Assembly (NCBI GenBank): GCA_003150615.1
Contig: QALN01000005.1
Location: 1-64,000 of the forward strand
Origin: Flavobacteriales bacterium
GTDB lineage: Bacteria; Bacteroidota; Bacteroidia; Flavobacteriales; UBA1820
DNA: 64,000 nt
Direction: 5' to 3'
The stretch's first letter is position 1; each line of letters starts with the position of its first letter. Both the position numbers and the translations under genes were made by a program. Positions 1 to 56,699 of this stretch are shown here, one piece after another. The notes beneath the pieces are model-generated. The model saw nothing but the letters and a program-made list of their open reading frames with translations, was not told where the DNA came from and searched no databases.

Positions 1-395
<395 letters not shown>

Positions 396-507
396 GCTCA
401 GAAGAACAACAACAAAAATACGTTTCAGCCAGTCTGCTCTAGTAGTGTTATCTCCTTATCGCTCAATATGTCAATAAAATAACGCCTTAAGCGGCGGTAA
501 ACAGCTT

Positions 508-616
<109 letters not shown>

Positions 617-628
617 TTTTAGATAACG

Positions 629-20616: not shown

Positions 20617-21420
20617 TTACTTCTTGTATTTAACAAGCATGTCCATCAGGCTGATGGAAGCGTCTTCCATCTTGTTGACTATATCATCGACCAAAGAGAT
20701 GATGTAGTTGTAGAATACCTGGAGGATGATGGCAACGATAAGACCGAAGAGGGTAGTAAGAAGTGCAACCTTGATACCTCCGGCAACCAGAGAAGGCTGG
20801 ATGTCTCCGGCAGCTTCGATGGCGTCGAACGCCTCAACCATACCTACCACAGTTCCGAGGAACCCGAGCATCGGGGCAAGTGCGATGAACAGAGCGAGCC
20901 AGGAGATGTTCTTTTCGAGACGGCCCATTTCGACACCGCCGTAAGATACTACTGATTTTTCAACCTGGTCGATGGATTCGCCGGCTTCTATGCGTTCCAG
21001 ACCCTGGTAGAATATAGAGCCTACAGGTCCGCGAGTGGCGCGTGCTATTTCCTTGGCAGCTTTTACGTTGCCTTTCTTGAGTTCGTCTTCAACAGCTTTG
21101 AGAAGTTTTTCTGTGTTCGTCGAAGCGAGGTTGAGATAGATGATGCGTTCGATGGCTATAGCCAGACCCATTATCAAGCACACGAGAACAGTGGCCATGA
21201 ACCCTGCGCCACCTTCGATGAACTTCTGTTTGAGCACCTGGTGGAAAGTCGCTGACGAGCCTTCCTCTACTACAGCGGCAGGGGCGGCAGCTTCATCGCT
21301 GGCGGCGGTAGCTTCAGTCTGTGCAGGAGCGGCTGCTGCGGCAGTTGAATCAGCGTCCTGAGCGTTTACACCGAGTGTAAACATCATTGCGATAGATAGA
21401 ATTAAAAAAAATCTCTTCAT
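20617..21420 (-). CDS. exbB: MotA/TolQ/ExbB proton-channel protein with Ala-rich exported N-terminus
   Basis: 267 residues. Signal-peptide-like start (about 1-20) followed by a low-complexity Ala/Glu/Thr/Pro stretch (about 21-55). The ExbB core has three transmembrane helices (about 72-92, 170-192, 215-240) with the family segments GFLGTVVGM and the late LLTTLFGLIVAI. It should form a pentameric stator with ExbD. The leader upstream is very A/T-rich. It heads the cluster exbB, membrane protein, exbD, exbD. Confidence 0.9.
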   Translation of the reverse strand: MKRFFLILSIAMMFTLGVNAQDADSTAAAAAPAQTEATAASDEAAAPAAVVEEGSSATFHQVLKQKFIEGGAGFMATVLVCLIMGLAIAIERIIYLNLASTNTEKLLKAVEDELKKGNVKAAKEIARATRGPVGSIFYQGLERIEAGESIDQVEKSVVSYGGVEMGRLEKNISWLALFIALAPMLGFLGTVVGMVEAFDAIEAAGDIQPSLVAGGIKVALLTTLFGLIVAIILQVFYNYIISLVDDIVNKMEDASISLMDMLVKYKK

Positions 21421-36483: not shown

Positions 36484-36603
36484 TTGTTTAAAGTTTTACT
36501 GCATACGTTTTTTTTTCGTTTTATAATAATTATCCGGAGGTTTTATTAAAATCGTGCTCCGGATATATCTTGAAGGGATTGTTGCAAAAAAGATGAAAAA
36601 ATG

Positions 36604-36635
36604 TTGCAAGTGTCGAAAATTATATCGGAAATTTG
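36604..36635 (+). promoter_or_regulatory. promoter for the B12 locus
   Basis: TTG (36604-36606), 21 bp, then GAAATTTG (36628-36635), one base off TAnnTTTG. Its predicted start point coincides with the beginning of the cobalamin riboswitch, which supports it. Confidence 0.5.
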
Positions 36636-36638
36636 TGG

Positions 36639-36846
36639 CCGCAACGGTTCCCGTTTTTTACGGGATTAAAAGGGAACGCCGTGAAAATCGGCGACAGTTC
36701 CCGCTGCTGTAAACCCCGGCTTTTTTGCGTTGGCCGTATGCCGTGTAAAAAAGTCCGTGCTTTTGGGACGTTAAGTCACTGCGCATTTACCAAAAATGCG
36801 TGGGAAGGCCTCAAAAGCGGGGTGAGTCAGAAGACCTGCCATTGCA
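36639..36846 (+). promoter_or_regulatory. cobalamin riboswitch
   Basis: The conserved B12 core is clear: GGGAAC (36673-36678), GTGAAAATC (36681-36689), the CCCGCTGCTGTAAA block (36700-36713), AAGTCACTGCG near 36774-36784, GGGAAGGC near 36802-36809 and the closing GTCAGAAGACCTGCC (36826-36840). It binds adenosyl- or other cobalamins in the nascent RNA and would lower expression of the downstream uptake genes when B12 is ample. It lies about 265 bp before the first gene of the B12 locus. Confidence 0.95.
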
Positions 36847-36852
36847 TGACGG

Positions 36853-36967
36853 AGATTTTACAGCCTGCGGAGAATGGGCGGTCTTTAGAGTCGATATACG
36901 GGATGTTTTTTCACATCTTCAATGCCGTGCCTTACGGCTTCCCGGATATCCGCCTGCTGTAAAATCT
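36853..36967 (+). promoter_or_regulatory. possible expression platform of the cobalamin riboswitch
   Basis: An inverted repeat joins AGATTTTACAGC (36853-36864) with GCTGTAAAATCT (36956-36967), 12 bp perfect, extended by further near-matches on the inner side. The left arm's TTTACAGC is also complementary to GCTGTAAA inside the conserved aptamer block (36706-36713). The left arm could thus pair with either the aptamer or the downstream arm. No classic terminator with a T-run is seen before the gene at 37110. Confidence 0.5.
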
Positions 36968-37109
36968 TCAACGGACACAGCAGGTACCCGCACCGGGTTT
37001 TACCAATTGCCTGTAATGTTTTCCCTGCGGATTTTATGCCTTGGGGACATTGTTGCCTGTTTGTGCCTTTGTATCGGGAAAATACAAACCATTTACAAAC
37101 ATTCATAAG

Positions 37110-38579
37110 ATGAAAAAAGCATTACTGTTTTTTATTTTCGCCCTTGTCCTGTCTTCGTGCAGCAAGAGCGAGGCTCCTGCCCCCACGCCGCAGGCTATCG
37201 TAACCCTTTCCGACGGAAGCTCAGTTTCCGATAATGTGGAAATGACTGCCGGGAATACCGTGAAATTTTCCGCAAAATGCGATAACGCCCAAATACGCCG
37301 CTGCGACTGGTATATCGACGGACAGCTTAAAAGCGTGGCCGATTATCTGGAATTTTCCCCTGTCCAGCCCGGCACGTACGAAATAAAACTCATCGTAACG
37401 GCTTACGGTGAATCCCAGGCAACCGTAGTGTTCTCCGTCACGGTTTACGGGCCGTATAAAAGCGGCACGTATATCCTTGTCGAGGGCAATATGAGCAGTG
37501 ATAATGGCTCGATATGCTTTGTCGATGAAAACGGTACGTTCTATTCCGACCCGTACGGCCAGGCCAATCTTAACGAAGGCCGTCCGACGTCTCCCGGCAA
37601 CGTATTGCAGGATATGTTCATCTATAAGGATAAAGCGTATTTCGTAACACAGAACGGAACCTCGCAGGGACAGGGCGCGCGCCTTGTAAAATGCGACGCC
37701 CAGACGCTCAAGGCTGAAAAATTCTATACCGGCTCGATAGACGACGAAACCGTATGGCCGCAGCACATAGTGGTCGTAAACGAAAACAAAGCGTACATAC
37801 GCTGGTCACAATCCGGTATGGAAACCACTTCAGGCATACGCGTTATGAACCTGGCCACCGGTCAGTGGAGCCCGGAGAGCATAGAAGGTACCGAAGGCGC
37901 ATTTACCGTGAGCGGTTCGACAAAGGCCCGCATGCTGCTTCAGGGGGATAAAGTTTATGCGCCGTGCGGGCAATATCTGAAAATAATCGACACAAATACC
38001 GACAAAGTGATAAAGACGATAGACTTCGGAGCTACCCGCCAGACCAAGGATATAGCCAAGGGCCATGACGGAAACATTTACATGCTTGTCAGCGGTACGT
38101 TCACGGGAGGTTTTTACTCGCCGACATACGGCTCCGAGGCTACTGTGGTATGCATAAAGCCTTCCGGCGATTCGTACACTGAAAAAGAACTGCCGGCCGA
38201 GATGCAGATGCCTGTGGCTACATGGAGCCCTAACGTGGGGATGTGCGCTTCGTTTACCGAAGACGCCCTGTTTTTCCGCATGGGCACAGGGTATTCCACT
38301 TCGGTGGTTGCGCGTTACGAATACAAGACCGGTACGGCTAAGAAGCTCTTGGACGTGTCGGGCCAGAGCGGACTCGGTTTCCTTGTGTACGGATACCTCG
38401 GAGTCGATAAAAACGATGTGCTTTACGTAGGCACGACCGATTATTCAAATTCCATGATAGGTACGTTCGATGCCAAAACGGGAGCTCGTCTGGAAAAGAC
38501 GTATCAGATAAGAAGCGGCAGCCCTGCGGGTATAGATTTCACGTACAGGTTCTCTGACGAGTACCTCGGAAGGAATTGA
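37110..38579 (+). CDS. BtuG-like cobalamin-binding surface lipoprotein with N-terminal PKD-like domain
   Basis: 489 residues from the ATG at 37110 (the frame opens at 37041 but the MKKALLFF signal and LSSC lipobox mark the true start). An Ig/PKD-like domain (about 30-120, with W-IDG and GTYEIKL landmarks) precedes a seven-bladed-propeller region with DUF5074/YncE-type repeats (about 125-489). BtuG propellers sit on BtuB at the cell surface and hold cobalamin very tightly. It is the first gene after the riboswitch. A second BtuG without the extra domain closes the locus, so this may be a functional variant. B12 binding is inferred from context and family. Confidence 0.82.
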   Translation: MKKALLFFIFALVLSSCSKSEAPAPTPQAIVTLSDGSSVSDNVEMTAGNTVKFSAKCDNAQIRRCDWYIDGQLKSVADYLEFSPVQPGTYEIKLIVTAYGESQATVVFSVTVYGPYKSGTYILVEGNMSSDNGSICFVDENGTFYSDPYGQANLNEGRPTSPGNVLQDMFIYKDKAYFVTQNGTSQGQGARLVKCDAQTLKAEKFYTGSIDDETVWPQHIVVVNENKAYIRWSQSGMETTSGIRVMNLATGQWSPESIEGTEGAFTVSGSTKARMLLQGDKVYAPCGQYLKIIDTNTDKVIKTIDFGATRQTKDIAKGHDGNIYMLVSGTFTGGFYSPTYGSEATVVCIKPSGDSYTEKELPAEMQMPVATWSPNVGMCASFTEDALFFRMGTGYSTSVVARYEYKTGTAKKLLDVSGQSGLGFLVYGYLGVDKNDVLYVGTTDYSNSMIGTFDAKTGARLEKTYQIRSGSPAGIDFTYRFSDEYLGRN

Positions 38580-38635
38580 AAACGCCTGTGCGGGTATGGA
38601 AAAGTATCCTGTTCGCACGGACTCGTAACGGACTG

Positions 38636-38673
38636 ACGGCCGGCAGGATGAAACGGTTGTGACGGCTGTTTTT
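38636..38673 (+). terminator. possible terminator after the first BtuG-like gene
   Basis: Arms ACGGCCG (38636-38642) and CGGCTGT (38663-38669), one G-U pair, followed by TTTTT. Weak; if real it separates the first gene from the btuB part of the locus. Confidence 0.35.
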
Positions 38674-38709
38674 AACTTTCGGCCGATAGGCAGATATTTT
38701 TTTTATACT

Positions 38710-38763
38710 CATCTTTGTTAAATGGTGGCAACCCTTCCGAGAGGCATTGAGGAGGGGATTGCC
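38710..38763 (+). promoter_or_regulatory. possible internal promoter and 5' hairpin in the B12 locus
   Basis: CATCTTTG (38710-38717) differs by one base from TAnnTTTG. Just after the expected start point comes a hairpin between GGCAACCCTTCC (38727-38738) and GGAGGGGATTGCC (38751-38763). It has no B12-box, so it is not a second cobalamin riboswitch. Confidence 0.35.
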
Positions 38764-38838
38764 CCGTTTAAATTTTCAAGGATGTGCGGAAAAATGCCGG
38801 TGATGAAAAATTTGAAATATATAAATAATAGATGCGAT

Positions 38839-40137
38839 ATGAAAAAAATCATCCGTGCTGCACTATTGCCTTTGGTGGTTGTGCTGGCATTCTGTTCGTG
38901 TACCAAGTATGAAAAAGTCGGCGGAGGCGGCAACGACGGGGAAAAAGTCTTCGACATACTCACTGCCGATAATTTCGCAGTGAACGCCGGTGAGAAAAAT
39001 GTTTTCAAAATAGGCCGCAGCCAGGACGGATACAGGTGGTTGCTCGACGGACGCGAGGTTTCCACGGCTTCCACTTATGAATTTACGCCGGTAAAACAGG
39101 GTACGTATGCCATAACCCTGGAAACGTCGGCCGGCAAGTACGAATGTTCGGTGGATGTGTTGAGACCGGTAACCGACAATTCGTCCAAATGGATATCCGA
39201 TATCGTGGAATACCGGCCGGCTCCCGGACAGTTTATAAATGCTTCTTCGTGGGGTACATACGAACGCGCACGTTCGATAATAGGCGAGCAGCCTGAATTA
39301 GGCGAGCGCGGCGGCGTGTCTTTGGGCGGTTTCGGCGGTTATATCATTTTCAAATTCGACCATACGGTGGTCAACCAAAACGGATACGATTTCGTAATAC
39401 GCGGCAACGCTTTCGACGGATCCAGCGAGCCCGGAGCCGTAATGGTGGCTTTCGACCGCAATGGAAACGGCGTGCCTGACGACGACGAATGGTACGAACT
39501 GGCAGGGGAAACATACAATCCCGCTTCCGGCGGATACGAATACACGGTAAAGAAGAATTTCACGGTTACTTACACCAGGCCCGACGATATTTCGAAAGCA
39601 GTGGACGTGTCGTGGAGCGCTTCCGACGGGACTTCCGGATATATTTACGCCAATGTGTTCCACAGCCAGCCTTACTGGCCTCTGTTTGTCGACGGGGATC
39701 CTGCACATATGACATTTACCGGAACATGCCTTAGCAATCTGTCGATAGACCGGAGCGAAGAGATGGGGATGGAGGGCGAATATTGGTACAGTGCCGCCGC
39801 CGGAAAGGGCTATGCCGATAATTACTCGGAAGAGTACGACGATATAGTAAACCTGGATCCGCAGACGGCCAGGAGCAACAAATTCGATATTTCCAACGCA
39901 GTGGACGCACAAGGCAACAAAGTAAGGCTCTCAGGTGCCGATTTTATAAAAGTATATACTTGTATAAACCAATCGTCGGGATGGTTGGGCGAAGGCTCGA
40001 CAGAGGTGTGCGGGGCAATTTCCCTTACATCCGGTCCGTTATCCGGACAGTCGGACCCTTATGCCTCAGGTGAAGGTTCGACGGAGGTATGCGGAGCCAT
40101 TTCGCTCTCGGCTAAAAAAAAGTTTTTATGTTTTTAA
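38839..40137 (+). CDS. surface lipoprotein of the B12 locus, PKD-like N-domain, duplicated C-terminal tail
   Basis: 432 residues from the ATG at 38839; lipobox FCSC near residue 20. An Ig/PKD-like domain (about 40-105) shares W-L-DG, YEFTPV and GTYAI landmarks with the first BtuG-like protein. A second domain (about 115-390) contains an acidic calcium-loop-like segment, DRNGNGVPDDDEW. The tail repeats GEGSTEVCGAISL twice. It overlaps btuB by 10 bp. BtuH is a known extra B12-binding surface protein of such loci, and this protein could play a similar part, but I cannot identify it as BtuH. Surface exposure and B12 handling are inferred from context. Confidence 0.75.
   Translation: MKKIIRAALLPLVVVLAFCSCTKYEKVGGGGNDGEKVFDILTADNFAVNAGEKNVFKIGRSQDGYRWLLDGREVSTASTYEFTPVKQGTYAITLETSAGKYECSVDVLRPVTDNSSKWISDIVEYRPAPGQFINASSWGTYERARSIIGEQPELGERGGVSLGGFGGYIIFKFDHTVVNQNGYDFVIRGNAFDGSSEPGAVMVAFDRNGNGVPDDDEWYELAGETYNPASGGYEYTVKKNFTVTYTRPDDISKAVDVSWSASDGTSGYIYANVFHSQPYWPLFVDGDPAHMTFTGTCLSNLSIDRSEEMGMEGEYWYSAAAGKGYADNYSEEYDDIVNLDPQTARSNKFDISNAVDAQGNKVRLSGADFIKVYTCINQSSGWLGEGSTEVCGAISLTSGPLSGQSDPYASGEGSTEVCGAISLSAKKKFLCF
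39988..40107 (+). repeat. 39-bp coding duplication at the 3' end of the surface lipoprotein gene
   Basis: Copies at 39988-40026 and 40069-40107 encode the same 13 residues. Eight of 13 codons differ, all at third positions, so no amino acid changed. The linker between copies is 14 codons. Confidence 0.9.
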
Positions 40138-42077
40138 AATTAAAAAGAGCATTGCCATGCGCTGTGGCGGCACTGTTGTGTACGGCGGCGCATGCCCAGA
40201 TAAAAACGTTCGACGACGTGGTAATAGTAGGCCGGCGTACGCTTAAGGAAAGCGCCGTTACCAAAACGGTGATAGATTCGGTAAAAATGGCCGAATCGGT
40301 CAATGCCTCGTTTGCCGAGCTTCTGTCCAAACACTCGTCCATTTTTGTCAAAACCTACGGCCAGGGTTCGACGGCTACCGTGTCGTTCCGGGGGACAGCG
40401 GCATCACATACGCAGGTGGAGTGGAATGGTGTAAACATAAACAACCCGATGTTGGGACAGGTGGATTTTTCCCTCATTCCGGTGTGGTTTGTGGATAAGA
40501 CGGAACTTTACCACGGAGGCAGTTCCCTGCAACAGGGCAGCGGCGCACTGGGCGGCGAAGTGAGCATAGGTTCCACGCCGCACTGGGGCGAGAAATTTTA
40601 CGGTGCGCTTATGCAGACGGCCGGAAGTTACGGGACTTACCAGACGTTTCTCTCGGTCGGGGGAGGGAGTGAAAAATTCCAGGCCCGTGTGCGTTATATG
40701 TACGACCAGGCGGAAAACGATTTCGAATACCTTAACAGGGCCGTGCCTCCTTTCGAGACAGTGAAACAAACCAACGCCGATTACAAAAAGCACGGTGGCG
40801 TGTTGGATATGTATTACAACGCGGGGAAAAACAATTTCCTTTCGCTCAACGTGTGGTTCATGCATGCCGACCGCAATCTGCCTACGATAATGTCATATCA
40901 GGGACCGGGCCGCACGGAAAAACAGACGGACAACGATACCCGTATCGTCGGTCGGTGGAACAAATACTGGGGACGTTTCCGTTCGGAATTCACCACCGGT
41001 TTTACCACGTCCAACATAGATTATTATCTGGCCAACAGAACTGATCTGGGCAGCTTCGTCAATTACGACTCCCGAAGTGTGATATACAGTTTTTACAACA
41101 AGTACAATTTCGAATTCAATCTTTCGGAAAAAACGTCGTTTAAAGCTACTGTAAATGGTAATTATCACGCTGTCAATATCTTCGACCGAATAACTGAGGA
41201 AGGATATTCGGCAGAGCGTACCGACTTCGGGCTAAGCGTTTCGGCGCATCACAGATTCAACGACTGGCTGTCTGGCTATGCATTGGTGCGGGAAGACCTT
41301 ACGGATGGAGGTTTTACACCGGTGATGCCTTCCGTCGGACTGGAATTCAAGCCTTTGGACGGGGAGCGGTTTTTCGTTAAGTTCAACGCTACGCGCAACT
41401 ATCACCAGCCGACGCTCAACGACCTCTACTGGCTGCCTGGAGGAAATCCGGACCTGCGTCCCGAGGAAGGCTATACGACCGACATGTCGGTGGAATACTC
41501 GCGCACGATGGGGCGTTTTTTCGCATCGGCGGGAGTTACGGGATACCTTTCGTGGATAGACGACTGGATAATATGGCGTCCGAGCGAATTCCGTTACTGG
41601 ACGGCTGAAAACATAAAAAAAGTGTTCGCGCGCGGGGCGGAAATAAACCTTTCCGGCGGATATTCTCACGGAGGACTGAAAGTGAATGCTTCGGGTAACT
41701 ATGCATATACCCGCACGTCGAACGAGGACCCGGACCTCAAGGACGACCAGTCGAAGGGGCGGCAGCTCATATACATCCCCGTGCACAAGGGAAATATCAT
41801 GCTCGATGCCGCATACAAAGGTTTTTACCTGTATTACGTATGGTCCGCTGTGAGTGAGCGTTATACCACATCGAGCAACGAGTCTACCCGGCACACCCTG
41901 CCTGCCTACGACATACACAATATGACAGTAGGCAAAAAGGTGAACATCGGCGGCGGATATGCGGTAGAGGCTTCGCTGAAGCTGAACAACGTGTTCGACA
42001 GAAAATACCAGGCTATACTCTGGCGGGCAATGCCGGGCCGCAATTATATGTTCTCACTTAAATTTTCGTTCGATTAA
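40128..42077 (+). CDS. btuB: TonB-dependent cobalamin receptor BtuB
   Basis: 649 residues. Signal peptide (to about 23, AHAQ), a TonB-box-like FDDVVIVGRR segment (about 28-37), a plug domain (about 40-155 with VSFRGTAASHTQVEWNGV and the GSGALGGEVSIG segment) and a 22-strand barrel ending in the aromatic FSLKFSFD. Import of cobalamin is inferred from the riboswitch and the two BtuG-type neighbours. The TonB/ExbB/ExbD proteins at 53426-56463 could energise it. The start lies inside the preceding gene, so translation is likely coupled. Confidence 0.9.
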   Translation: MFLKLKRALPCAVAALLCTAAHAQIKTFDDVVIVGRRTLKESAVTKTVIDSVKMAESVNASFAELLSKHSSIFVKTYGQGSTATVSFRGTAASHTQVEWNGVNINNPMLGQVDFSLIPVWFVDKTELYHGGSSLQQGSGALGGEVSIGSTPHWGEKFYGALMQTAGSYGTYQTFLSVGGGSEKFQARVRYMYDQAENDFEYLNRAVPPFETVKQTNADYKKHGGVLDMYYNAGKNNFLSLNVWFMHADRNLPTIMSYQGPGRTEKQTDNDTRIVGRWNKYWGRFRSEFTTGFTTSNIDYYLANRTDLGSFVNYDSRSVIYSFYNKYNFEFNLSEKTSFKATVNGNYHAVNIFDRITEEGYSAERTDFGLSVSAHHRFNDWLSGYALVREDLTDGGFTPVMPSVGLEFKPLDGERFFVKFNATRNYHQPTLNDLYWLPGGNPDLRPEEGYTTDMSVEYSRTMGRFFASAGVTGYLSWIDDWIIWRPSEFRYWTAENIKKVFARGAEINLSGGYSHGGLKVNASGNYAYTRTSNEDPDLKDDQSKGRQLIYIPVHKGNIMLDAAYKGFYLYYVWSAVSERYTTSSNESTRHTLPAYDIHNMTVGKKVNIGGGYAVEASLKLNNVFDRKYQAILWRAMPGRNYMFSLKFSFD

Positions 42078-42089
42078 TACATTCCCGAA

Positions 42090-43196
42090 ATGAAAAAGAG
42101 CATTTTTTTACTGCTGCTGACCTCCCTTGTCGCCTGTTCCTGCGGCGACGACCTTATGACCGGAGGCGTTCAGTACGATCGTCAGGGAGAAGGTGTGTTC
42201 ATATGCAATGAAGGCAATTTCATGTACGGTAACGCATCTCTTTCGTATTACGATCCCGAAAAACGCGAGGCGGACAACCAGGTATTTTACAATGCGAATA
42301 ATTTTCCACTTGGAGATGTATGCCAGTCGATGTCGATAATCGGCGGACGCGGTTTCGTGGTGGTGAACAACTCAGGCAAGGTGTTTGTGATAGATATCAA
42401 CACGTTCAAATACCTCGGGGTTATAAAAGGACTTACTTCCCCTAGGTATATACAGCAGGTAAGCGATGACAAAATATACATTTCCGATATTTACAGCCCG
42501 TTTATTGCCATTGCCGACCCAAAGACGCTGGAGGTTACCGGGCGCGTGTACATGGGTACGAGAAACGGTCCCGGCAAGGTGAACGGCACGGAGCAGATGG
42601 TCATGCACGGCAACTATGTGTACGTATGCAGCTGGTCATACAACAACAAGATATATAAGATAGACACCCGTACCGATGAGGTCGTCGACTCGATAGGCGT
42701 TACCAAGCAACCCAATAGCATGGTGCTGGACAAAAACGGCAAGATATGGGTGCTGTCCGACGGCAGCTATAAGGGCTCGCCCTACGGGCAGGAGCGGGCT
42801 TCTCTGATAAAAATAGACGCAGGGCGTTTTGCCGTTGAAGCGATAATGGATTTTCCGACCATGGAATGTTCGCCTTCGGAACTTTGCATAAACGGCGCTC
42901 GTGACAGGATATATTTTATAAACGGAAGCTGGGCTGGAGAAGGCGTTGCCAATAGCGGAATATATACTATGGGTGTCGAAGAGACTACGTTGCCTTCTGC
43001 ACCGCTGATACCTGAGGACGGCCGGCTGTTCTATGCGCTGGCCATACACCCTAAAACAGGTGAAATATATTTCAGCGATGCGATAGACTACGTGCAGCGC
43101 GGCATCGTGTTCCGCTATTCTGCGGACGGGCGGCGTATCGATGAATTCAAAGTGGATATTATACCGGGGGCTTTCTGCTTTAAGACGGCCGAGTAA
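42090..43196 (+). CDS. btuG: BtuG-type cobalamin-capturing surface lipoprotein
   Basis: 368 residues. Signal peptide with Cys in the VACSCG segment (lipidated Cys near 16-18). The mature part is a DUF5074 seven-bladed propeller starting GEGVFICNEGNFMYGNASLSY, a BtuG hallmark. BtuG forms a lid on BtuB and hands over B12. It begins 12 bp after btuB, as in characterised Bacteroides loci. No extra N-terminal domain is present, unlike the gene at 37110. A perfect-arm terminator follows. Confidence 0.9.
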   Translation: MKKSIFLLLLTSLVACSCGDDLMTGGVQYDRQGEGVFICNEGNFMYGNASLSYYDPEKREADNQVFYNANNFPLGDVCQSMSIIGGRGFVVVNNSGKVFVIDINTFKYLGVIKGLTSPRYIQQVSDDKIYISDIYSPFIAIADPKTLEVTGRVYMGTRNGPGKVNGTEQMVMHGNYVYVCSWSYNNKIYKIDTRTDEVVDSIGVTKQPNSMVLDKNGKIWVLSDGSYKGSPYGQERASLIKIDAGRFAVEAIMDFPTMECSPSELCINGARDRIYFINGSWAGEGVANSGIYTMGVEETTLPSAPLIPEDGRLFYALAIHPKTGEIYFSDAIDYVQRGIVFRYSADGRRIDEFKVDIIPGAFCFKTAE

Positions 43197-43211
43197 AACC
43201 GCATATATTTC

Positions 43212-43270
43212 AAAAACTCCGGTTAAACAAAGCGGGTACGACAACACGTCATTGTTTAACCGGAGTTTTT
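43212..43270. terminator. terminator after btuG
   Basis: Perfect 19-bp arms AAAAACTCCGGTTAAACAA (43212-43230) and its complement (43252-43270) with a 21-base loop, A-run and T-run at the ends. Can serve both convergent genes, though it is 110 bp from the HD gene's stop. Confidence 0.87.
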
Positions 43271-43380
43271 AATTGTCTGTTATGGATAGCAGGGTAATGA
43301 CCGATATGTGCGAGGCCGGCTGTGATGATACGGTTGCGGCAGATAAATGCCTCCGTAGTGATTCTTTCGCCTGTATTATG

Positions 43381-44350: not shown

Positions 44351-44422
44351 TAGTCCGTAGGGGAATCGAACCCCTGTTTCAAGAATGAGAATCTTGCGTC
44401 CTAACCGCTAGACGAACAGACC
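44351..44422 (-). tRNA. tRNA-Glu (CTC)
   Basis: 72 nt. Anticodon loop TTCTCAT with anticodon CTC between stems CAAGA and TCTTG. Acceptor GGTCTGT pairs with ACGGACT (two G-U pairs); T loop GGTTCGATTCC. CCA not encoded. Downstream member of a tandem pair. Confidence 0.92.
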
Positions 44423-44449
44423 GCGGTTTTGCGCTCCAGGGGAGCTTTG

Positions 44450-44521
44450 TAGCCCGTAGGGGAATCGAACCCCTGTTACCAGAATGAAAATCTGACGTCC
44501 TAACCGCTAGACGAACGGGCC
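44450..44521 (-). tRNA. tRNA-Glu (TTC)
   Basis: 72 nt. Anticodon loop TTTTCAT with anticodon TTC. Acceptor GGCCCGT pairs with ACGGGCT. D and T arms are almost identical to those of the neighbouring tRNA-Glu (CTC). CCA not encoded. First of the pair, 52 bp from its promoter. Confidence 0.94.
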
Positions 44522-52182: not shown

Positions 52183-53127
52183 TTATATGTTTTCACGGAC
52201 GTTCACTATTCTAAGCGGCTGGGTGGCAGGGACTAGACCTGCTCGGAGTATTATGCGTTGCCCCCGGTCGGATGTCAGGAACGATGTAAATCCGGAGGCC
52301 AGGCCGCTGCGAGGGTCGGTGAGCAGTGCGTATACGTCGCGCCTAAGGGGATATTCTCCAAGCGCTATGTAGGCCTGGTACGGTTTGACGCTGTTTTCCG
52401 CCGTGGCGTGTTCTTGTTTGGAAACCGCCATCACGCGTATCCTGTGGTCGAACCGGGTATTCGATGAGTCTGTTTCCTGGCGGCTTATCCAACTTACCCC
52501 GATAACTCCGATGGCTCCAGGTGTTTTCTCTACATAGTCTATCACCGACGGATTGTCGTTTTGTGCGTATAATGCTCCTGCTAGCGGCTCTGAGGCACAT
52601 ATGGAGTCGATGGAAAAGCGCACTGTGCTCGAATTTGGATTGTCGAATACGAGCGACAGTGCGCCCAGTTCAGATTTGGGGTTTATTTGTTGCCACGAGG
52701 TGATTTTTCCCGTCAGTATCTTCTTAAGTACGGGTATGCTTATGAGCGTGTCGGGGTTTTCCCGGTTGACGATAAGAGCTATCGCATCGGTGGCTATTTT
52801 TATTTCCTTCGGAAAGAATTTCCTGTCCTCGAGCGATTGGCGTTCCTGTGCGGAAAGCATGCGCGTAGTTATGGCCAGGCGTACGCTGTCCGTAAGAAGA
52901 AGGCTTATCGCTTCCTTTTCGCTCGTGTTTAGAGGTATGATGCCCGCCATTGTGTATATATTTTCGAACACCTCGGCCTGTTGGGCAATTATGGGAGCGA
53001 AACTCTCGTCGGCGCTAATCTCCACTACGCCGGTAGTGGCCGTGTCGGTGTATTTGTCTTTGGGGCCGTTGGAACACGATGTTGCAGCAATAATGGCGGC
53101 TATGCCCAGTGCGTATTTTTTTATCAT
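52183..53127 (-). CDS. PstS-like phosphate-binding-fold lipoprotein
   Basis: 314 residues; lipobox ATSC near residue 18. The mature part is a periplasmic-binding-protein type II fold of the PstS kind: ADESFAPIIAQQAEVFE (about 38-55), LAITTRMLSAQERQ, ALIVNRENPDTLISIPVLKKILTGKITSWQQIN (range about 115-150, landmark only), and the later GAIGVIG block (about 210). The SGT-like Ser/Thr-Arg phosphate site is in SSTVRFSIDS. No pst transporter genes are present. It overlaps the preceding gene by 4 bp (ATGA). Function next to the TonB genes is unclear: phosphate sensing or use of the fold for another anion. Confidence 0.78.
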   Translation of the reverse strand: MIKKYALGIAAIIAATSCSNGPKDKYTDTATTGVVEISADESFAPIIAQQAEVFENIYTMAGIIPLNTSEKEAISLLLTDSVRLAITTRMLSAQERQSLEDRKFFPKEIKIATDAIALIVNRENPDTLISIPVLKKILTGKITSWQQINPKSELGALSLVFDNPNSSTVRFSIDSICASEPLAGALYAQNDNPSVIDYVEKTPGAIGVIGVSWISRQETDSSNTRFDHRIRVMAVSKQEHATAENSVKPYQAYIALGEYPLRRDVYALLTDPRSGLASGFTSFLTSDRGQRIILRAGLVPATQPLRIVNVRENI

Positions 53128-53425: not shown

Positions 53426-54241
53426 TTACCTTTCCGCTATTTGGAACAGGATGGGCACTACGAAATATACCGAAACCGCTCTGCCGTTCTGTTTCCCCGG
53501 AATCCATCGCGGCATGGATTTTACCACGCGCAGCGCTTCCTTGTCGCAGGCGTCGCTTATACCGCGCGCTATCGTCACGTCCGTTATTTCCCCGGTTTTG
53601 GATACGACGAATTGTATGAATACCCGGCCTTGTGTTCCGGTTTCGAGCGCTACGTAAGGATATACCAGGTGTTCGCGTATGTATTTGTACATTGCCTCTT
53701 CACCTCCAGGGAACTGGGGTTTTTCCTCCACCGCATAGGTTTGCATTACCTCTTCCACGTCCTGGGCTATTTCCTTGAGTTCGGCTATGTCTTTACCGTG
53801 TTCCTCGTCGTTGCCTTTTACGTCGGCGATGGAAATAGCTACTTTGGATTCGATTATTTCTTCCTGGGATTTTATCTCATCCTCTTCGCGTACTTCCTCA
53901 TCTTTTTTTATGACGGGCGCGGTGAATTTTATCGAACTTTTAAGGGGCGGCGGCGGTGGGGCGTCAACTTTTTTGATTTCGTCGTTGTTCTTTACCTCAG
54001 GTGGCGGCAGTTTGGAAATGGTTGTCACTTCCGTTATTACAACCTTGTCCTGTTTCGGCGTGACGAATGTCATAACCGCCTTTAGAGATATGAGAAGCAC
54101 GACGATAAGGGCCACTATGATCATGGCCGTAGTGTGTCTTCGGGGAGATGTGCGGCGCATCTGATATGCACCGTACTCTTTGTTTTTATCTTCAAAAACC
54201 AGTTCGCACCAATCTTTTGAAGTCAGATCTATCTTAGCCAT
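53426..54241 (-). CDS. tonB: TonB energy transducer
   Basis: 271 residues. Cytoplasmic start with the DWCELVFEDKNKEYGAYQMRR segment typical of this phylum, one transmembrane helix (about 40-62), a Pro- and charge-rich periplasmic linker (about 75-165) and a C-terminal TonB domain (about 180-271) with PQFPGGEEAMYKYI and the YP-A-GTQGRVFIQFVV core. It passes proton-motive energy from ExbB/ExbD to outer-membrane receptors such as the BtuB and SusC of this window. Last gene before the terminator. Confidence 0.95.
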   Translation of the reverse strand: MAKIDLTSKDWCELVFEDKNKEYGAYQMRRTSPRRHTTAMIIVALIVVLLISLKAVMTFVTPKQDKVVITEVTTISKLPPPEVKNNDEIKKVDAPPPPPLKSSIKFTAPVIKKDEEVREEDEIKSQEEIIESKVAISIADVKGNDEEHGKDIAELKEIAQDVEEVMQTYAVEEKPQFPGGEEAMYKYIREHLVYPYVALETGTQGRVFIQFVVSKTGEITDVTIARGISDACDKEALRVVKSMPRWIPGKQNGRAVSVYFVVPILFQIAER

Positions 54242-54265
54242 TTTTCTTCCGATTGATGATGATTC

Positions 54266-54934
54266 CTATTGTTTTACAGCCTGCTGGGCAGGATCCGCTA
54301 TCTGTTGTGTGAGTTTGCCCGAGGTTTCGAGGTTTTCGATCAGCCATTTATCGCCGGGCGTGATGTCCACTATGGCGTATTTGCTTATGTTGCATATTTG
54401 CATTTCGTCGAGCGCGTCTATCAGATTCTTGTAATTGGCCCCATCGGTGGCTTTTATCATTACCACAGGAGAGGACTTGTCTTTTTTTATCTCAGAAGCC
54501 TGTGTTTTGAACTCTTCGTCGGATAATTTGCGTTCTTCCTTTTGGTGTTTCAGTTCGCGCATTTTTTCCATTACCGTACTGTTGCGCTGAAGCAGCAGGG
54601 CGCGGAGCCCGTCGGCATCGTATGAGGTGCGTTTGAGGGAATTGTAATCCCGGTAATCCGGCTCGCCGGTATAGTAGTACACTTTGCCTTCGTCGCCCAG
54701 AATGAGCGTTATGGCACGTGAAGCCTGTACCTTGGTTTGTTCTTCTTCCGAAACTTTGTCGTTGGTAGGCATGCTTATTTCCATAGTCTGAGGCTTGCTG
54801 AGCGAAGTGCAGAGCATGAAGAAAGTTATAAGAAGCATGTTCATGTCCACCATAGGGGTAAAGTCCAGGCGGGTATTGATTTTCTTCTGTTTGCCTTTCT
54901 TTTTGCCGCTGTCTTTTTCTTGTATATCTGCCAT
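54266..54934 (-). CDS. exbD: ExbD-family protein (second, tonB operon)
   Basis: 222 residues. Transmembrane helix at about 22-42 with the conserved Asp in LDFTPMVDMNMLLITFFM, then a periplasmic domain with a helical insert rich in Lys and Glu (about 110-150). The late VMIKATDGANYKNLIDALDEMQI segment matches the ExbD/TolR C-terminal fold. Works with ExbB and TonB. It lies 24 bp upstream of tonB and 19 bp downstream of the other exbD. Confidence 0.92.
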   Translation of the reverse strand: MADIQEKDSGKKKGKQKKINTRLDFTPMVDMNMLLITFFMLCTSLSKPQTMEISMPTNDKVSEEEQTKVQASRAITLILGDEGKVYYYTGEPDYRDYNSLKRTSYDADGLRALLLQRNSTVMEKMRELKHQKEERKLSDEEFKTQASEIKKDKSSPVVMIKATDGANYKNLIDALDEMQICNISKYAIVDITPGDKWLIENLETSGKLTQQIADPAQQAVKQ

Positions 54935-54953
54935 GATATTTGTTTTTTAGCCT

Positions 54954-55568
54954 TTAAAGGTCGTCGGTGTTGACGGTTTTAAGGGTCGTTATCAGGTTAT
55001 AGCGGTTTTCGCGGAGGTCCTGAAGGGAGTTCATAACACCTCGGATACGGGGGTATGGGGTGTATTGGTCCGCTTTTATGGCTATGGTAAGGTCTTTCCC
55101 GTTTTGCAGGCGGGCTTCCTTTACCCATACTTTGAACTGGTTGTCCAGGCTGTCGCACGGTACGCCGTAGTCTTTCAGACTGGCGTCCTGTATGTCGGCA
55201 GGCAGGGCCAGGAATTGTTTCATGTTTTCGATAGGCACGCCGAAGGAATTCATCAGTTTGAATTTGTTAAGCTCTTCCCGTGTGAATTCTATTCCGTAGT
55301 GCTCGCCTACTTTCTTTAGCACTTCCACCCTGTCTTCCTGTTTGTCGAGTCCTAAAAATACTTTTCCCGTGTGGTCTATGAGTATTTGCAGGACATTCAC
55401 TTCGGGTATCTTTATCTCCGATACCGATGCCGGAGTGGATACTATGACAGGTTCTTTCTGTACGAACGTGGAGGTGAGCATAAAGAAAGTGAGCAATAGT
55501 ACCGTCACGTCGCTCATGGCGGTCATGTCGATAACGGTACTTTTTCTCTTTACTTTTACTTTAGGCAT
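54954..55568 (-). CDS. exbD: ExbD-family protein (first, tonB operon)
   Basis: 204 residues. Transmembrane helix at about 18-36; the conserved Asp lies in STVIDMTAMSDVTVLLLTFFM. Periplasmic domain with the TIAIKADQYTPYPRIRGVMNSLQD segment near the end, as in ExbD/TolR. A second, different exbD follows directly. Two exbD genes per system is normal in Bacteroidales and suggests a mixed ExbD pair in the stator. Confidence 0.92.
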   Translation of the reverse strand: MPKVKVKRKSTVIDMTAMSDVTVLLLTFFMLTSTFVQKEPVIVSTPASVSEIKIPEVNVLQILIDHTGKVFLGLDKQEDRVEVLKKVGEHYGIEFTREELNKFKLMNSFGVPIENMKQFLALPADIQDASLKDYGVPCDSLDNQFKVWVKEARLQNGKDLTIAIKADQYTPYPRIRGVMNSLQDLRENRYNLITTLKTVNTDDL

Positions 55569-55596
55569 GGTTCCTTGCGTTTTTGCTAGGTTCGTA

Positions 55597-56463
55597 TTAG
55601 TTGTGCTTGGCGGCGAATGTCTGTACCAGGCTGAAGCCCACTTCGTCTATGCAATAGGTTATGCTGTCTATCTTGCTGGTAAAGAAGTTGTACGATATTA
55701 CGGCCAGTGCTCCGGTGGCTATACCGAATGCGGTGTTGATAAGCGCTTCGGAAATACCGGTAGAAAGCGCTATCGTATCGGGCGAGCCTGCATTGGCCAG
55801 CGCGGCGAACGAACGTATCATGCCGATGACGGTTCCAAGGAGTCCCATGAGCGTTCCCAGTGTGGTTATCGTGGCTATAACGCCGAGGTTTTGTTCCAGC
55901 ATGGGCAATTCCAGTGCGGTGGCCTCTTCTATTTCTTTCTGTATCGACAGGGTCTTCTGATCCTTGGACATGGTATTGTCGTTCTCCATTTCCTGGTATT
56001 TTCTCAGGGCTGATTTTACGACATTAGCTATCGACCCTTTTTGTTTATCGCACAGGCTGTGCGCCTTTTGCAGATCACCGTGCATAAGGGCTTCTTTGAT
56101 GTTCTGTACGAATTTTGTCATGTTTCCTCGGCCTTTTGCCCGGCTGATGGCAAACCAACGTTCAAAGCTGAGCACCAGTACTGTCAGAAGCAATGTCTGG
56201 ATTACAGGTACGATGATGCCCCCTTTGTAGATGGTTCCCAACAGGTCGCCTGGAAGCGGGTGATTGGCAGGGTCTCCGTTCATAAAGTGCGACGGGTCGC
56301 CGAAGACGTATTTGAACAGCAGGCAGGCTACGATGAAACAGAAAACGATTACTATCGGAGCAGATCCTATGCCTGCGAATGATTTGTTTTTTTTAGTCTT
56401 GGAATTCATAATACAGGTGTTTTTTGATTTGTTTTTTTCTGACGTTTTTTCGGTTGTTTCCAT
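55597..56463 (-). CDS. exbB: MotA/TolQ/ExbB proton-channel protein (tonB operon)
   Basis: About 288 residues from the ATG at 56463; ATG at 56499 and 56409 are alternatives in frame and the start is not certain. Three transmembrane helices (about 35-55, 90-112, 220-245 from 56463) with the family core LGTLMGLLGTVIGMIRSFAALA. It forms the proton channel with ExbD. Unlike the other ExbB at 20617 it has no signal peptide or Ala-rich stretch. First gene of exbB, exbD, exbD, tonB. No promoter element is clear in the 200 bp upstream. Confidence 0.9.
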   Translation of the reverse strand: METTEKTSEKNKSKNTCIMNSKTKKNKSFAGIGSAPIVIVFCFIVACLLFKYVFGDPSHFMNGDPANHPLPGDLLGTIYKGGIIVPVIQTLLLTVLVLSFERWFAISRAKGRGNMTKFVQNIKEALMHGDLQKAHSLCDKQKGSIANVVKSALRKYQEMENDNTMSKDQKTLSIQKEIEEATALELPMLEQNLGVIATITTLGTLMGLLGTVIGMIRSFAALANAGSPDTIALSTGISEALINTAFGIATGALAVISYNFFTSKIDSITYCIDEVGFSLVQTFAAKHN

Positions 56464-56699
56464 AATGCGGATAATACGGCGGTGTATGCGTTTCCCCATT
56501 GAAAGCTTTTGCGCGCAGCGTTAAGGCGTGGTGGTAGGGAGCATGCGCCGGTTTGGTCCGTGCCTGTTCGGGTTTTTTAAGGCGCGGTTGTTGTACGGTC
56601 TGTGTTGAAATAAAATGAGGATGCGCCGGGCATGTGTCGGTTTATCGGCCCGAAGCTGGCAAACCCGTTATGCGCGGTAGGAAATACGTGGCGGATGTA
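56464..56699. other. intergenic stretch upstream of exbB
   Basis: About 235 bp, G/C-rich compared with other spacers, with no gene, terminator or promoter that I can support. Control of the tonB operon presumably lies here. Confidence 0.35.

What the first reader, a model, noticed from the sequence alone, without database searches (positions are those of the whole stretch)
36600..43270. B12 locus with two BtuG-type proteins around BtuB, one carrying an extra PKD-like domain
A cobalamin riboswitch is followed by a BtuG-like propeller with an N-terminal Ig/PKD-like domain, a lipoprotein sharing a similar PKD-like domain, BtuB, and a plain BtuG. Known loci usually have one BtuG beside BtuB. The shared PKD-like module (W-[I/L]-DG, then YEF/LEF-[S/T]PV and GTY-I-L) in two lipoproteins of different C-terminal fold suggests module exchange within the locus, perhaps to space the propeller from the membrane or dock partners. 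This arrangement may be an undescribed surface B12-capture complex.
Basis: partly seen in the sequence, partly recalled or inferred. Interest (0 to 1): 0.75.

Follow-up and report, generated by a model that had tools for sequence, protein, structure and literature searches.

The report
Third propeller lipoprotein in B12 locus
This is a vitamin B12 capture-and-uptake gene block of a Bacteroidota-type bacterium, made mostly of known parts, in which the first gene belongs to a widespread, B12-regulated family of propeller proteins that is related to, but distinct from, two known ones and whose function appears not to have been described.

Summary
The locus is real and is a vitamin B12 uptake block: cobalamin riboswitch, then ORF1 (37110-38579), ORF2 (38839-40137), BtuB (40128-42077) and BtuG (42090-43196). 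ORF1 is a PKD-plus-propeller lipoprotein but not a second BtuG. Its propeller matches BtuG2, BtuG3 and BtuK1 about equally; BT1487 (BtuK2) is the one B12-locus structure that matches it PKD included, so that layout is already known. In a tree of DUF5074 propellers ORF1 falls in a third clade ("X"), apart from BtuG and BtuK. Clade X genes lie near btuB, btuG and btuH in 39 of 55 loci, from Chitinophaga to Bacteroides (less regularly in Rikenellaceae). A cobalamin riboswitch lies upstream in 24 of 29 X loci scanned; the 5 misses all start near a contig end. I found no description of clade X in the papers searched. Recent PKD exchange within the locus is not supported. Most likely X is a stalked surface corrinoid-capture protein feeding BtuH and BtuBG; corrinoid binding is inferred, not shown.

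The parts
36628..36857 (+). Cobalamin riboswitch aptamer (RF00174)
   Evidence: 92.2 bits, E 1.4e-21
37110..38579 (+). ORF1, 489 aa clade-X lipoprotein: signal peptide with Cys17, PKD-like domain, DUF5074 propeller
   Evidence: Pfam, AlphaFold model, Foldseek and VIA-align, trees
37173..37451 (+). PKD-like domain of ORF1 (residues about 22-114)
   Evidence: PKD_3 20.8 bits, below cut-off 26.3; strands between 28 and 113 in the model; PKD_3 listed for 10 of 12 closest relatives
37458..38558 (+). DUF5074 beta-propeller of ORF1 (residues about 117-483)
38839..40137 (+). ORF2, BtuH-type B12-binding lipoprotein, 432 aa, one PKD-like domain
   Evidence: 7BIZ E 2.7e-54, 8BLW_B E 5.1e-41; model top hit 7BIZ
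38938..39168 (+). PKD-like domain of ORF2
   Evidence: PKD_3 30.1 bits, over cut-off 26.3; modelled strands 36-108
39988..40107 (+). C-terminal tail of ORF2 with two copies of GEGSTEVCGAISL (39988-40026 and 40069-40107)
   Evidence: 8 nucleotide differences, all third position, no residue change; tail also in 5 of 8 relatives at 58% identity or more
40128..42077 (+). BtuB, TonB-dependent corrinoid transporter
   Evidence: 8BMX_C (transporter of the complex with a surface lipoprotein) E 3.1e-103; plug and barrel
42090..43196 (+). BtuG, propeller lid lipoprotein
   Evidence: 8P97_B (BtuG3) E 2.1e-102; inside the BtuG clade; 4 of 5 named pocket aromatics kept

Best explanation
A corrinoid-repressed surface uptake block. 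When B12 is scarce the riboswitch lets the genes be expressed, and three lipoproteins and BtuB are made. BtuG sits as the lid on BtuB and hands B12 to it (published mechanism for the Bacteroides proteins, applied here by homology). BtuH on its PKD stalk binds B12 and may load BtuBG. ORF1, a member of an uncharacterised third DUF5074 clade (X), puts a propeller on a stalk about 100 residues from its lipid anchor (BtuG: about 16), an unlikely build for a tight lid; it most likely catches corrinoids, as BtuK1 does, and passes them to BtuH and BtuBG. Shown by computation: gene identities, fold, clade, riboswitch, conserved neighbourhood. Inferred: surface location, corrinoid binding by ORF1, hand-over order, one transcript.
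For: Riboswitch. BtuH, BtuB and BtuG by sequence. Fold of ORF1. Three-clade trees. BtuB, BtuG and BtuH all within 9 kb of the clade-X gene in 39 of 55 loci. Cobalamin riboswitch upstream on the same strand in 24 of 29 X loci scanned, the 5 misses all cut by a contig end; it ends within 300 nt of the X start in 10 of the 29 and in the window, 7 of these 10 having no btuB, btuG or btuH within 9 kb (L021, L025, L026, L043, L127, L159, L160). BtuK1, a related propeller, binds cyanocobalamin (PMC12751083). E125, G126, N127, N153 and G163 of ORF1 are common to X and BtuG (94% or more of the rows of each; N153 also in all 7 K rows).
Against: Three of the five BtuG2 aromatics named in print (194, 272, 316) have no aromatic counterpart in ORF1 in my alignment; the 7 K rows, BtuK1 among them, also mostly lack them, so this is not decisive. 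BtuK2 has the PKD-propeller layout and showed no cobalamin binding. Of 14 Rikenellaceae loci not already in the first set, 1 had all three neighbours and 7 none. In L002 and L005 the riboswitch lies 4-5.5 kb upstream, so the link there is loose. A few X proteins (L033, L054, the 411-aa one of L039) have no room for a stalk.
Confidence: 0.62

Rival explanations
1. ORF1 is a B12-regulon accessory protein that does not itself bind corrinoid, like BtuK2 or BtuL: a scaffold, vesicle-loading factor or partner of BtuH.
For: BtuK2 (same PKD-propeller layout) and BtuL showed no cobalamin binding, and both are enriched in vesicles (PMC12751083). BtuG pocket aromatics are mostly not kept in ORF1.
Against: Polar residues E125, N127, N153, Q167, D168, Q181, Q218 and H219 are invariant in the 31-row family alignment, which suggests a ligand or partner site; ligand and partner cannot be told apart here.
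Confidence: 0.25
2. ORF1 is a second lid (BtuG) that swaps on one BtuB, for instance for different corrinoids.
Against: Separate clade with strong support; anchor-to-propeller distance about 100 residues against about 16 in ORF4, and about 290-400 in a dozen X proteins, some of whose starts are uncertain, whereas the BtuG2 linker is described as a hinge held by BtuB (PMC10404256, passages).
Confidence: 0.07
3. ORF1 binds something other than free corrinoid, such as a B12-protein complex or another nutrient, but is controlled by B12.
For: Propeller lipoproteins are adaptable; a propeller partner in iron-siderophore uptake of Bacteroides is recalled (XusB), and a paper on iron piracy is in the library (PMC13142918, listing with start of abstract only).
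Against: Cobalamin riboswitch control and the btuB-btuG-btuH neighbourhood across several families.
Confidence: 0.06

Closest known systems
BtuK1/BtuK2 (BT_1486/BT_1487) of B. thetaiotaomicron operon 1; structures 9S6C and 4R5O
   Same: Riboswitch-controlled lipoprotein; DUF5074 propeller; N-terminal PKD-like domain (PF16820+PF16819 listed for P0037, identical to the B. faecis BtuK1 ortholog); lies in an operon with btuH, btuB and a BtuG
   Different: Own clade (7 rows, 99/99), 18-19% identity to ORF1 in structural alignment; BtuK1 binds cyanocobalamin and BtuK2 was not seen to (PMC12751083); nothing is known for clade X. The 9S6C construct holds the propeller only
BtuG1/2/3
   Same: Propeller lipoprotein next to BtuB; shared EGN...N...G positions; ORF4 is a true BtuG
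   Different: ORF1 lies outside the BtuG clade, carries a long stalk and keeps few of the named pocket aromatics
BtuH1/BtuH2 (7BIZ) and BtuGH
   Same: ORF2: same B12-binding C-terminal domain, 8 of 8 reported contact residues, PKD stalk
   Different: One PKD in place of the three of BtuH2; a tail repeating the last strand motif
BtuL (BT_1955)
   Same: Lipoprotein of a B12 operon
   Different: Its B. faecis positional counterpart (L127 4648-6855) is a 735-aa protein with no phmmer match to ORF1, ORF4, BtuK1 or BtuK2

Membership tests
BtuG (for ORF1) | Lies in the clade of BtuG among DUF5074 propellers | tested here: not met
   X, G and K each one side of a branch, 99/92, 100/99, 99/99; ORF1 in X (48 of the 105 rows)
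BtuG (for ORF1) | Propeller fold of BtuG type | tested here: met
BtuG (for ORF1) | Pocket aromatics 194/239/272/316/335 of BtuG2 | tested here: inconclusive
   ORF1: gap, F, M, G, Y in a low-identity alignment; the K rows, including the B12 binder BtuK1, also mostly lack them
BtuG (for ORF4) | Clade, sequence and pocket | tested here: met
   E 2.1e-102 to BtuG3; clade; W, Y, C, Y, Y at the five sites
BtuK (for ORF1) | PKD-like domain plus DUF5074 propeller | tested here: met
BtuK (for ORF1) | Lies in the BtuK1/BtuK2 clade | tested here: not met
   K clade of 7 rows excludes ORF1, support 99/99
BtuK or BtuG (for ORF1) | Binds corrinoid | not testable with these tools
   Needs a binding assay
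BtuH (for ORF2) | C-terminal B12-binding domain with reported contact residues | tested here: met
   E 2.7e-54 to 7BIZ; Q333, N399, F401, H476, Y510, W511, W577, L578 all kept (alignment read by hand with offset 100, residues)
BtuB (for ORF3) | Plug and barrel, closest to Bacteroides BtuB | tested here: met
   8BMX_C E 3.1e-103, 8P97_A 1e-93; Plug and barrel
Cobalamin riboswitch | Match to RF00174 over gathering score, full model length | tested here: met
   92.2 bits, positions 1-189

The most novel reading that the evidence does not exclude
Clade X is an undescribed class of surface corrinoid-capture propellers, apart from BtuG and BtuK, conserved as a standing member of the btuB-btuG-btuH block across Bacteroidota. 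Its propeller is kept while its stalk module is replaced (PKD-like, BACON-like, DUF4988-type), so that each lineage sets its own reach from the membrane.
Probability: 0.5. Interest if true: 0.6.

Novelty: new variant of a known kind. Interest (0 to 1): 0.46.

Why it matters
B12 is a contested nutrient in the gut, and known Bacteroides loci already hold BtuG, BtuH, BtuJ and BtuK as corrinoid binders. A further propeller family, riboswitch-controlled and linked to the transporter in Bacteroides, Phocaeicola, Porphyromonas, Dysgonomonas, Chitinophaga and some Rikenellaceae, would mean that the described B. thetaiotaomicron inventory is not the full one. It also gives a clean test of whether extra surface lipoproteins widen ligand range, reach or loading of BtuBG.

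Tried and rejected
Rejected: ORF1 as a BtuG or BtuK ortholog; ORF1 as a BtuL relative (the BtuL position in L127 has no match to these propellers); recent PKD exchange within the locus (no direct or inverted repeat of 20 bases or more with a 12-base seed in 36500-43300).

Led nowhere: promoter-like and terminator-like sites in the block are at the chance level (9 against 8.6, 9 against 8.4), so one transcript is assumed from gene order and spacing alone. A recalled Bacteroidetes promoter pattern gave no site in the block. phmmer of ORF1 alone found no solved structure at E 1 or better. No genome is held for the window, so its species is not known. B. thetaiotaomicron was not recognised among the 158 genus genomes; I used B. 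faecis (G002) and identified its BtuK1/K2 by match to 9S6C and 4R5O. Coordinates of models are not readable here, so no pocket or docking test of ORF1 was made. The BtuG-pocket comparison rests on a sequence alignment at about 20% identity.

Rows dropped: the tree uses 105 of 129 candidate ORFs, the rest being PKD-only hits in BtuH proteins or too short; the tree uses 48 of the 105, picked by hand for spread, without the very long branch L054. In the PKD comparison 12 N-terminal domains, both BtuK1 ones included, were left out by a motif filter. L001 was replaced by L127, the same B. faecis gene with more flank. Six of the 20 Rikenellaceae loci (L153-L158) lie on contigs of the same length as loci already counted (L006, L002, L003, L007, L005, L034) and are taken as the same. 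Two of 57 loci (L056, L057) had no X gene. Riboswitches were sought in 29 of the 69 distinct X loci (55 + 14).
Full report
OBSERVATION. The window carries at 36628-36857 a full-length cobalamin riboswitch (RF00174, 92.2 bits), followed on the same strand by four genes. ORF1, 37110-38579, encodes 489 aa with a lipoprotein signal (Cys17), a small strand-rich domain and a DUF5074 domain. ORF2 most likely starts at 38839 (432 aa, signal peptide ending in a Cys); the open frame runs further upstream to 38722. ORF2 overlaps ORF3 (BtuB, 40128-42077) by 10 bases, and ORF4 (BtuG, 42090-43196) follows after 12 bases; the ORF1-ORF2 gap is 259 bases. Terminator-like and promoter-like matches in the block are no more frequent than in shuffles.

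WHAT THE PARTS ARE. ORF3 is closest to the transporter chain of 8BMX (E 3.1e-103), by title a B. thetaiotaomicron B12 transporter in complex with a surface lipoprotein. ORF4 is a BtuG (8P97_B, E 2.1e-102), in the BtuG clade, and keeps four of the five pocket aromatics that the BtuG2 structure paper names (W, Y, C, Y, Y at 194, 239, 272, 316, 335, residues from PMC10404256, passages; positions transferred through B. faecis BtuG with an offset of 13 that I set by the anchor cysteine). All eight B12-contacting residues listed for BtuH2 (PMC8941943, section read) are kept in ORF2; I read this by hand from the alignment, taking construct index = residue number minus 100. The same paper reports three PKD domains in BtuH2 and notes that BtuH genes come with N-terminal PKD, propeller or other domains, so PKD-BtuH is already known.

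A THIRD CLADE. From 57 loci found in named genomes with the ORF1 family, the window, and B. faecis and G042 regions, 105 DUF5074 propellers were placed in a tree (X is one group there at SH-aLRT 93, below the star level, with one stray row labelled as BtuG-like). A careful tree of 48 of them gives three groups: BtuG (16 rows, 100/99), BtuK (7 rows, 99/99) and X (25 rows, 99/92). ORF1 is in X, in an 11-row subclade (100/99) with Rikenellaceae, Porphyromonas somerae and a B. faecis protein. BtuK1 and BtuK2 were identified in B. faecis by E 8e-188 to 9S6C and E 3.1e-201 to 4R5O. The root is unknown, and the sample was drawn with ORF1-type patterns, so further DUF5074 clades may exist.

NEIGHBOURHOOD AND CONTROL OF CLADE X. 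In the 57 loci (L127 in place of L001), an X gene was recovered in 55; within 9 kb of it (either strand) lay BtuB in 40, BtuH in 47, BtuG in 40, all three in 39, none in 8; of the 39 with 7 kb or more on both sides, 31 had all three. Many of these are Chitinophagaceae, so the loci are not independent. In Rikenellaceae, 22 of 268 genomes had an ORF1 match at E 1e-20 or better, and 2 of 393 genomes drawn from the order did at 1e-40. Riboswitches were sought in 29 loci with X: 24 have a cobalamin riboswitch upstream on the same strand, directly or up to about 7.5 kb away, as a rule at the head of the btu gene block; in L002 and L005 it lies 4-5.5 kb upstream with no btu gene that I detected between. 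The five without (L003, L009, L010, L040, L054) all have X or its block starting within 1.2 kb of a contig end. In 10 of the 29 (L006, L007, L008, L021, L025, L026, L043, L127, L159, L160), and in the window, the riboswitch ends within 300 bases of the X gene. Seven of these ten have none of btuB, btuG or btuH within 9 kb (L021, L025, L026, L043, L127, L159, L160; the L026 and L127 stretches end shortly behind X), so the link to B12 does not rest on the neighbours alone.

STALKS. Among ten X proteins scanned, PKD_3 is over its cut-off in one (L032) and below it in two (L010, L016), PKD_2 gives weak matches in four, DUF4988 is present in three, and L005 and L045 show no credible N-terminal family; by eye several carry a BACON-like sequence (the name BACON is recalled). 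ORF1 has about 100 residues between anchor and propeller, ORF4 about 16; L033, L054 and the 411-aa protein of L039 have too few for a stalk. The two PKD-like domains of the window are homologous (score 83, shuffles 26.1, sd 4.5), but ORF1's PKD is far closer to PKDs of its own family (132-178 for P0003-P0006 and P0008-P0013, which score 42-82 with ORF2's). Over 27 PKD-propeller proteins (24 clade-X ones, the window's, and two BtuK2) and 47 BtuH proteins with a long N-terminus, same-locus pairs score no higher than other pairs (49.2 against 52.8). Against this: for the window itself ORF2 is the best of 47 BtuH partners.

MECHANISM. Published work shows BtuG as a B12-binding lid on BtuB, BtuH as a B12 binder that may load it, and BtuK1 as a B12 binder while BtuK2 was not seen to bind (PMC10404256, passages; PMC8941943, two sections and passages; PMC12751083, two sections and passages). 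By homology BtuB, BtuG and BtuH here work likewise. For X, control, neighbourhood, fold and conserved polar residues point to corrinoid capture on a stalk, with hand-over to BtuH and BtuBG. Binding itself is inferred. Only 2 of 5 named BtuG aromatic positions are aromatic in ORF1 (F, Y), but the K rows differ there as well.

NOVELTY. Searches of the paper library gave one paper naming DUF5074 (PMC9431301, listing only), on antibiotic-induced vesicles of another bacterium by its title. The main texts of five B12 papers contain the word DUF5074 zero times. eLife 2018 (PMC6143338, one section and passages) mentions two operons with a divergent btuG found by fold matching, which could be of clade X; the 2014 operon survey that it cites was not looked up. 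So the claim is limited: I found no description of clade X. The system is a new variant of a known kind. The most novel reading is a separate, phylum-wide class of stalked corrinoid-capture propellers.

Noticed in passing
window 39988-40107 (end of ORF2): The BtuH protein ends with a second copy of its last-strand motif GEGSTEVCGAISL; the copies differ by 8 bases, all synonymous (0 of 20,000 random 8-change sets keep the peptide). The tail is in 5 of 8 relatives at 58% identity or more and is low-confidence in the model (pLDDT under 50, residues 400-432). It may be a spare strand or a docking tag.
   Followed up: partly
L127:17033-19385 (Bacteroides faecis): A clade-X gene (664 aa, DUF4988 plus DUF5074) with its own cobalamin riboswitch, about 3.4 kb beyond genes that look like BtuFCD (by eye) and on the far side of the counterpart of the B. 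thetaiotaomicron J2-H2-L-G2-B2 operon.
   Followed up: partly
L041, L046, L050 (Phocaeicola): BtuG-BtuH fusion proteins, like B. thetaiotaomicron BtuGH, lie between BtuB and the clade-X gene.
   Followed up: no
L028 (Bacteroides congonensis): Four BtuH-type genes lie within 21 kb around one BtuB and one BtuG, with two divergent cobalamin riboswitches.
   Followed up: no
L056 and L057 (Pedobacter): Blocks with two BtuG-like proteins, two BtuH and a BtuK-like propeller without room for a PKD stalk (367 aa).
   Followed up: no
window 53429-56499 and 20620-21420: A TonB C-terminal protein and an ExbB-type protein beside a PBP-superfamily protein (52186-53127), and a second ExbB-type gene: possible energy supply for BtuB, not linked by distance.
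   Followed up: no
window 44351-44521 (-), 1-618 (+): Two tandem tRNA genes near the block, and a 23S end plus 5S rRNA at the left edge of the window.
   Followed up: no
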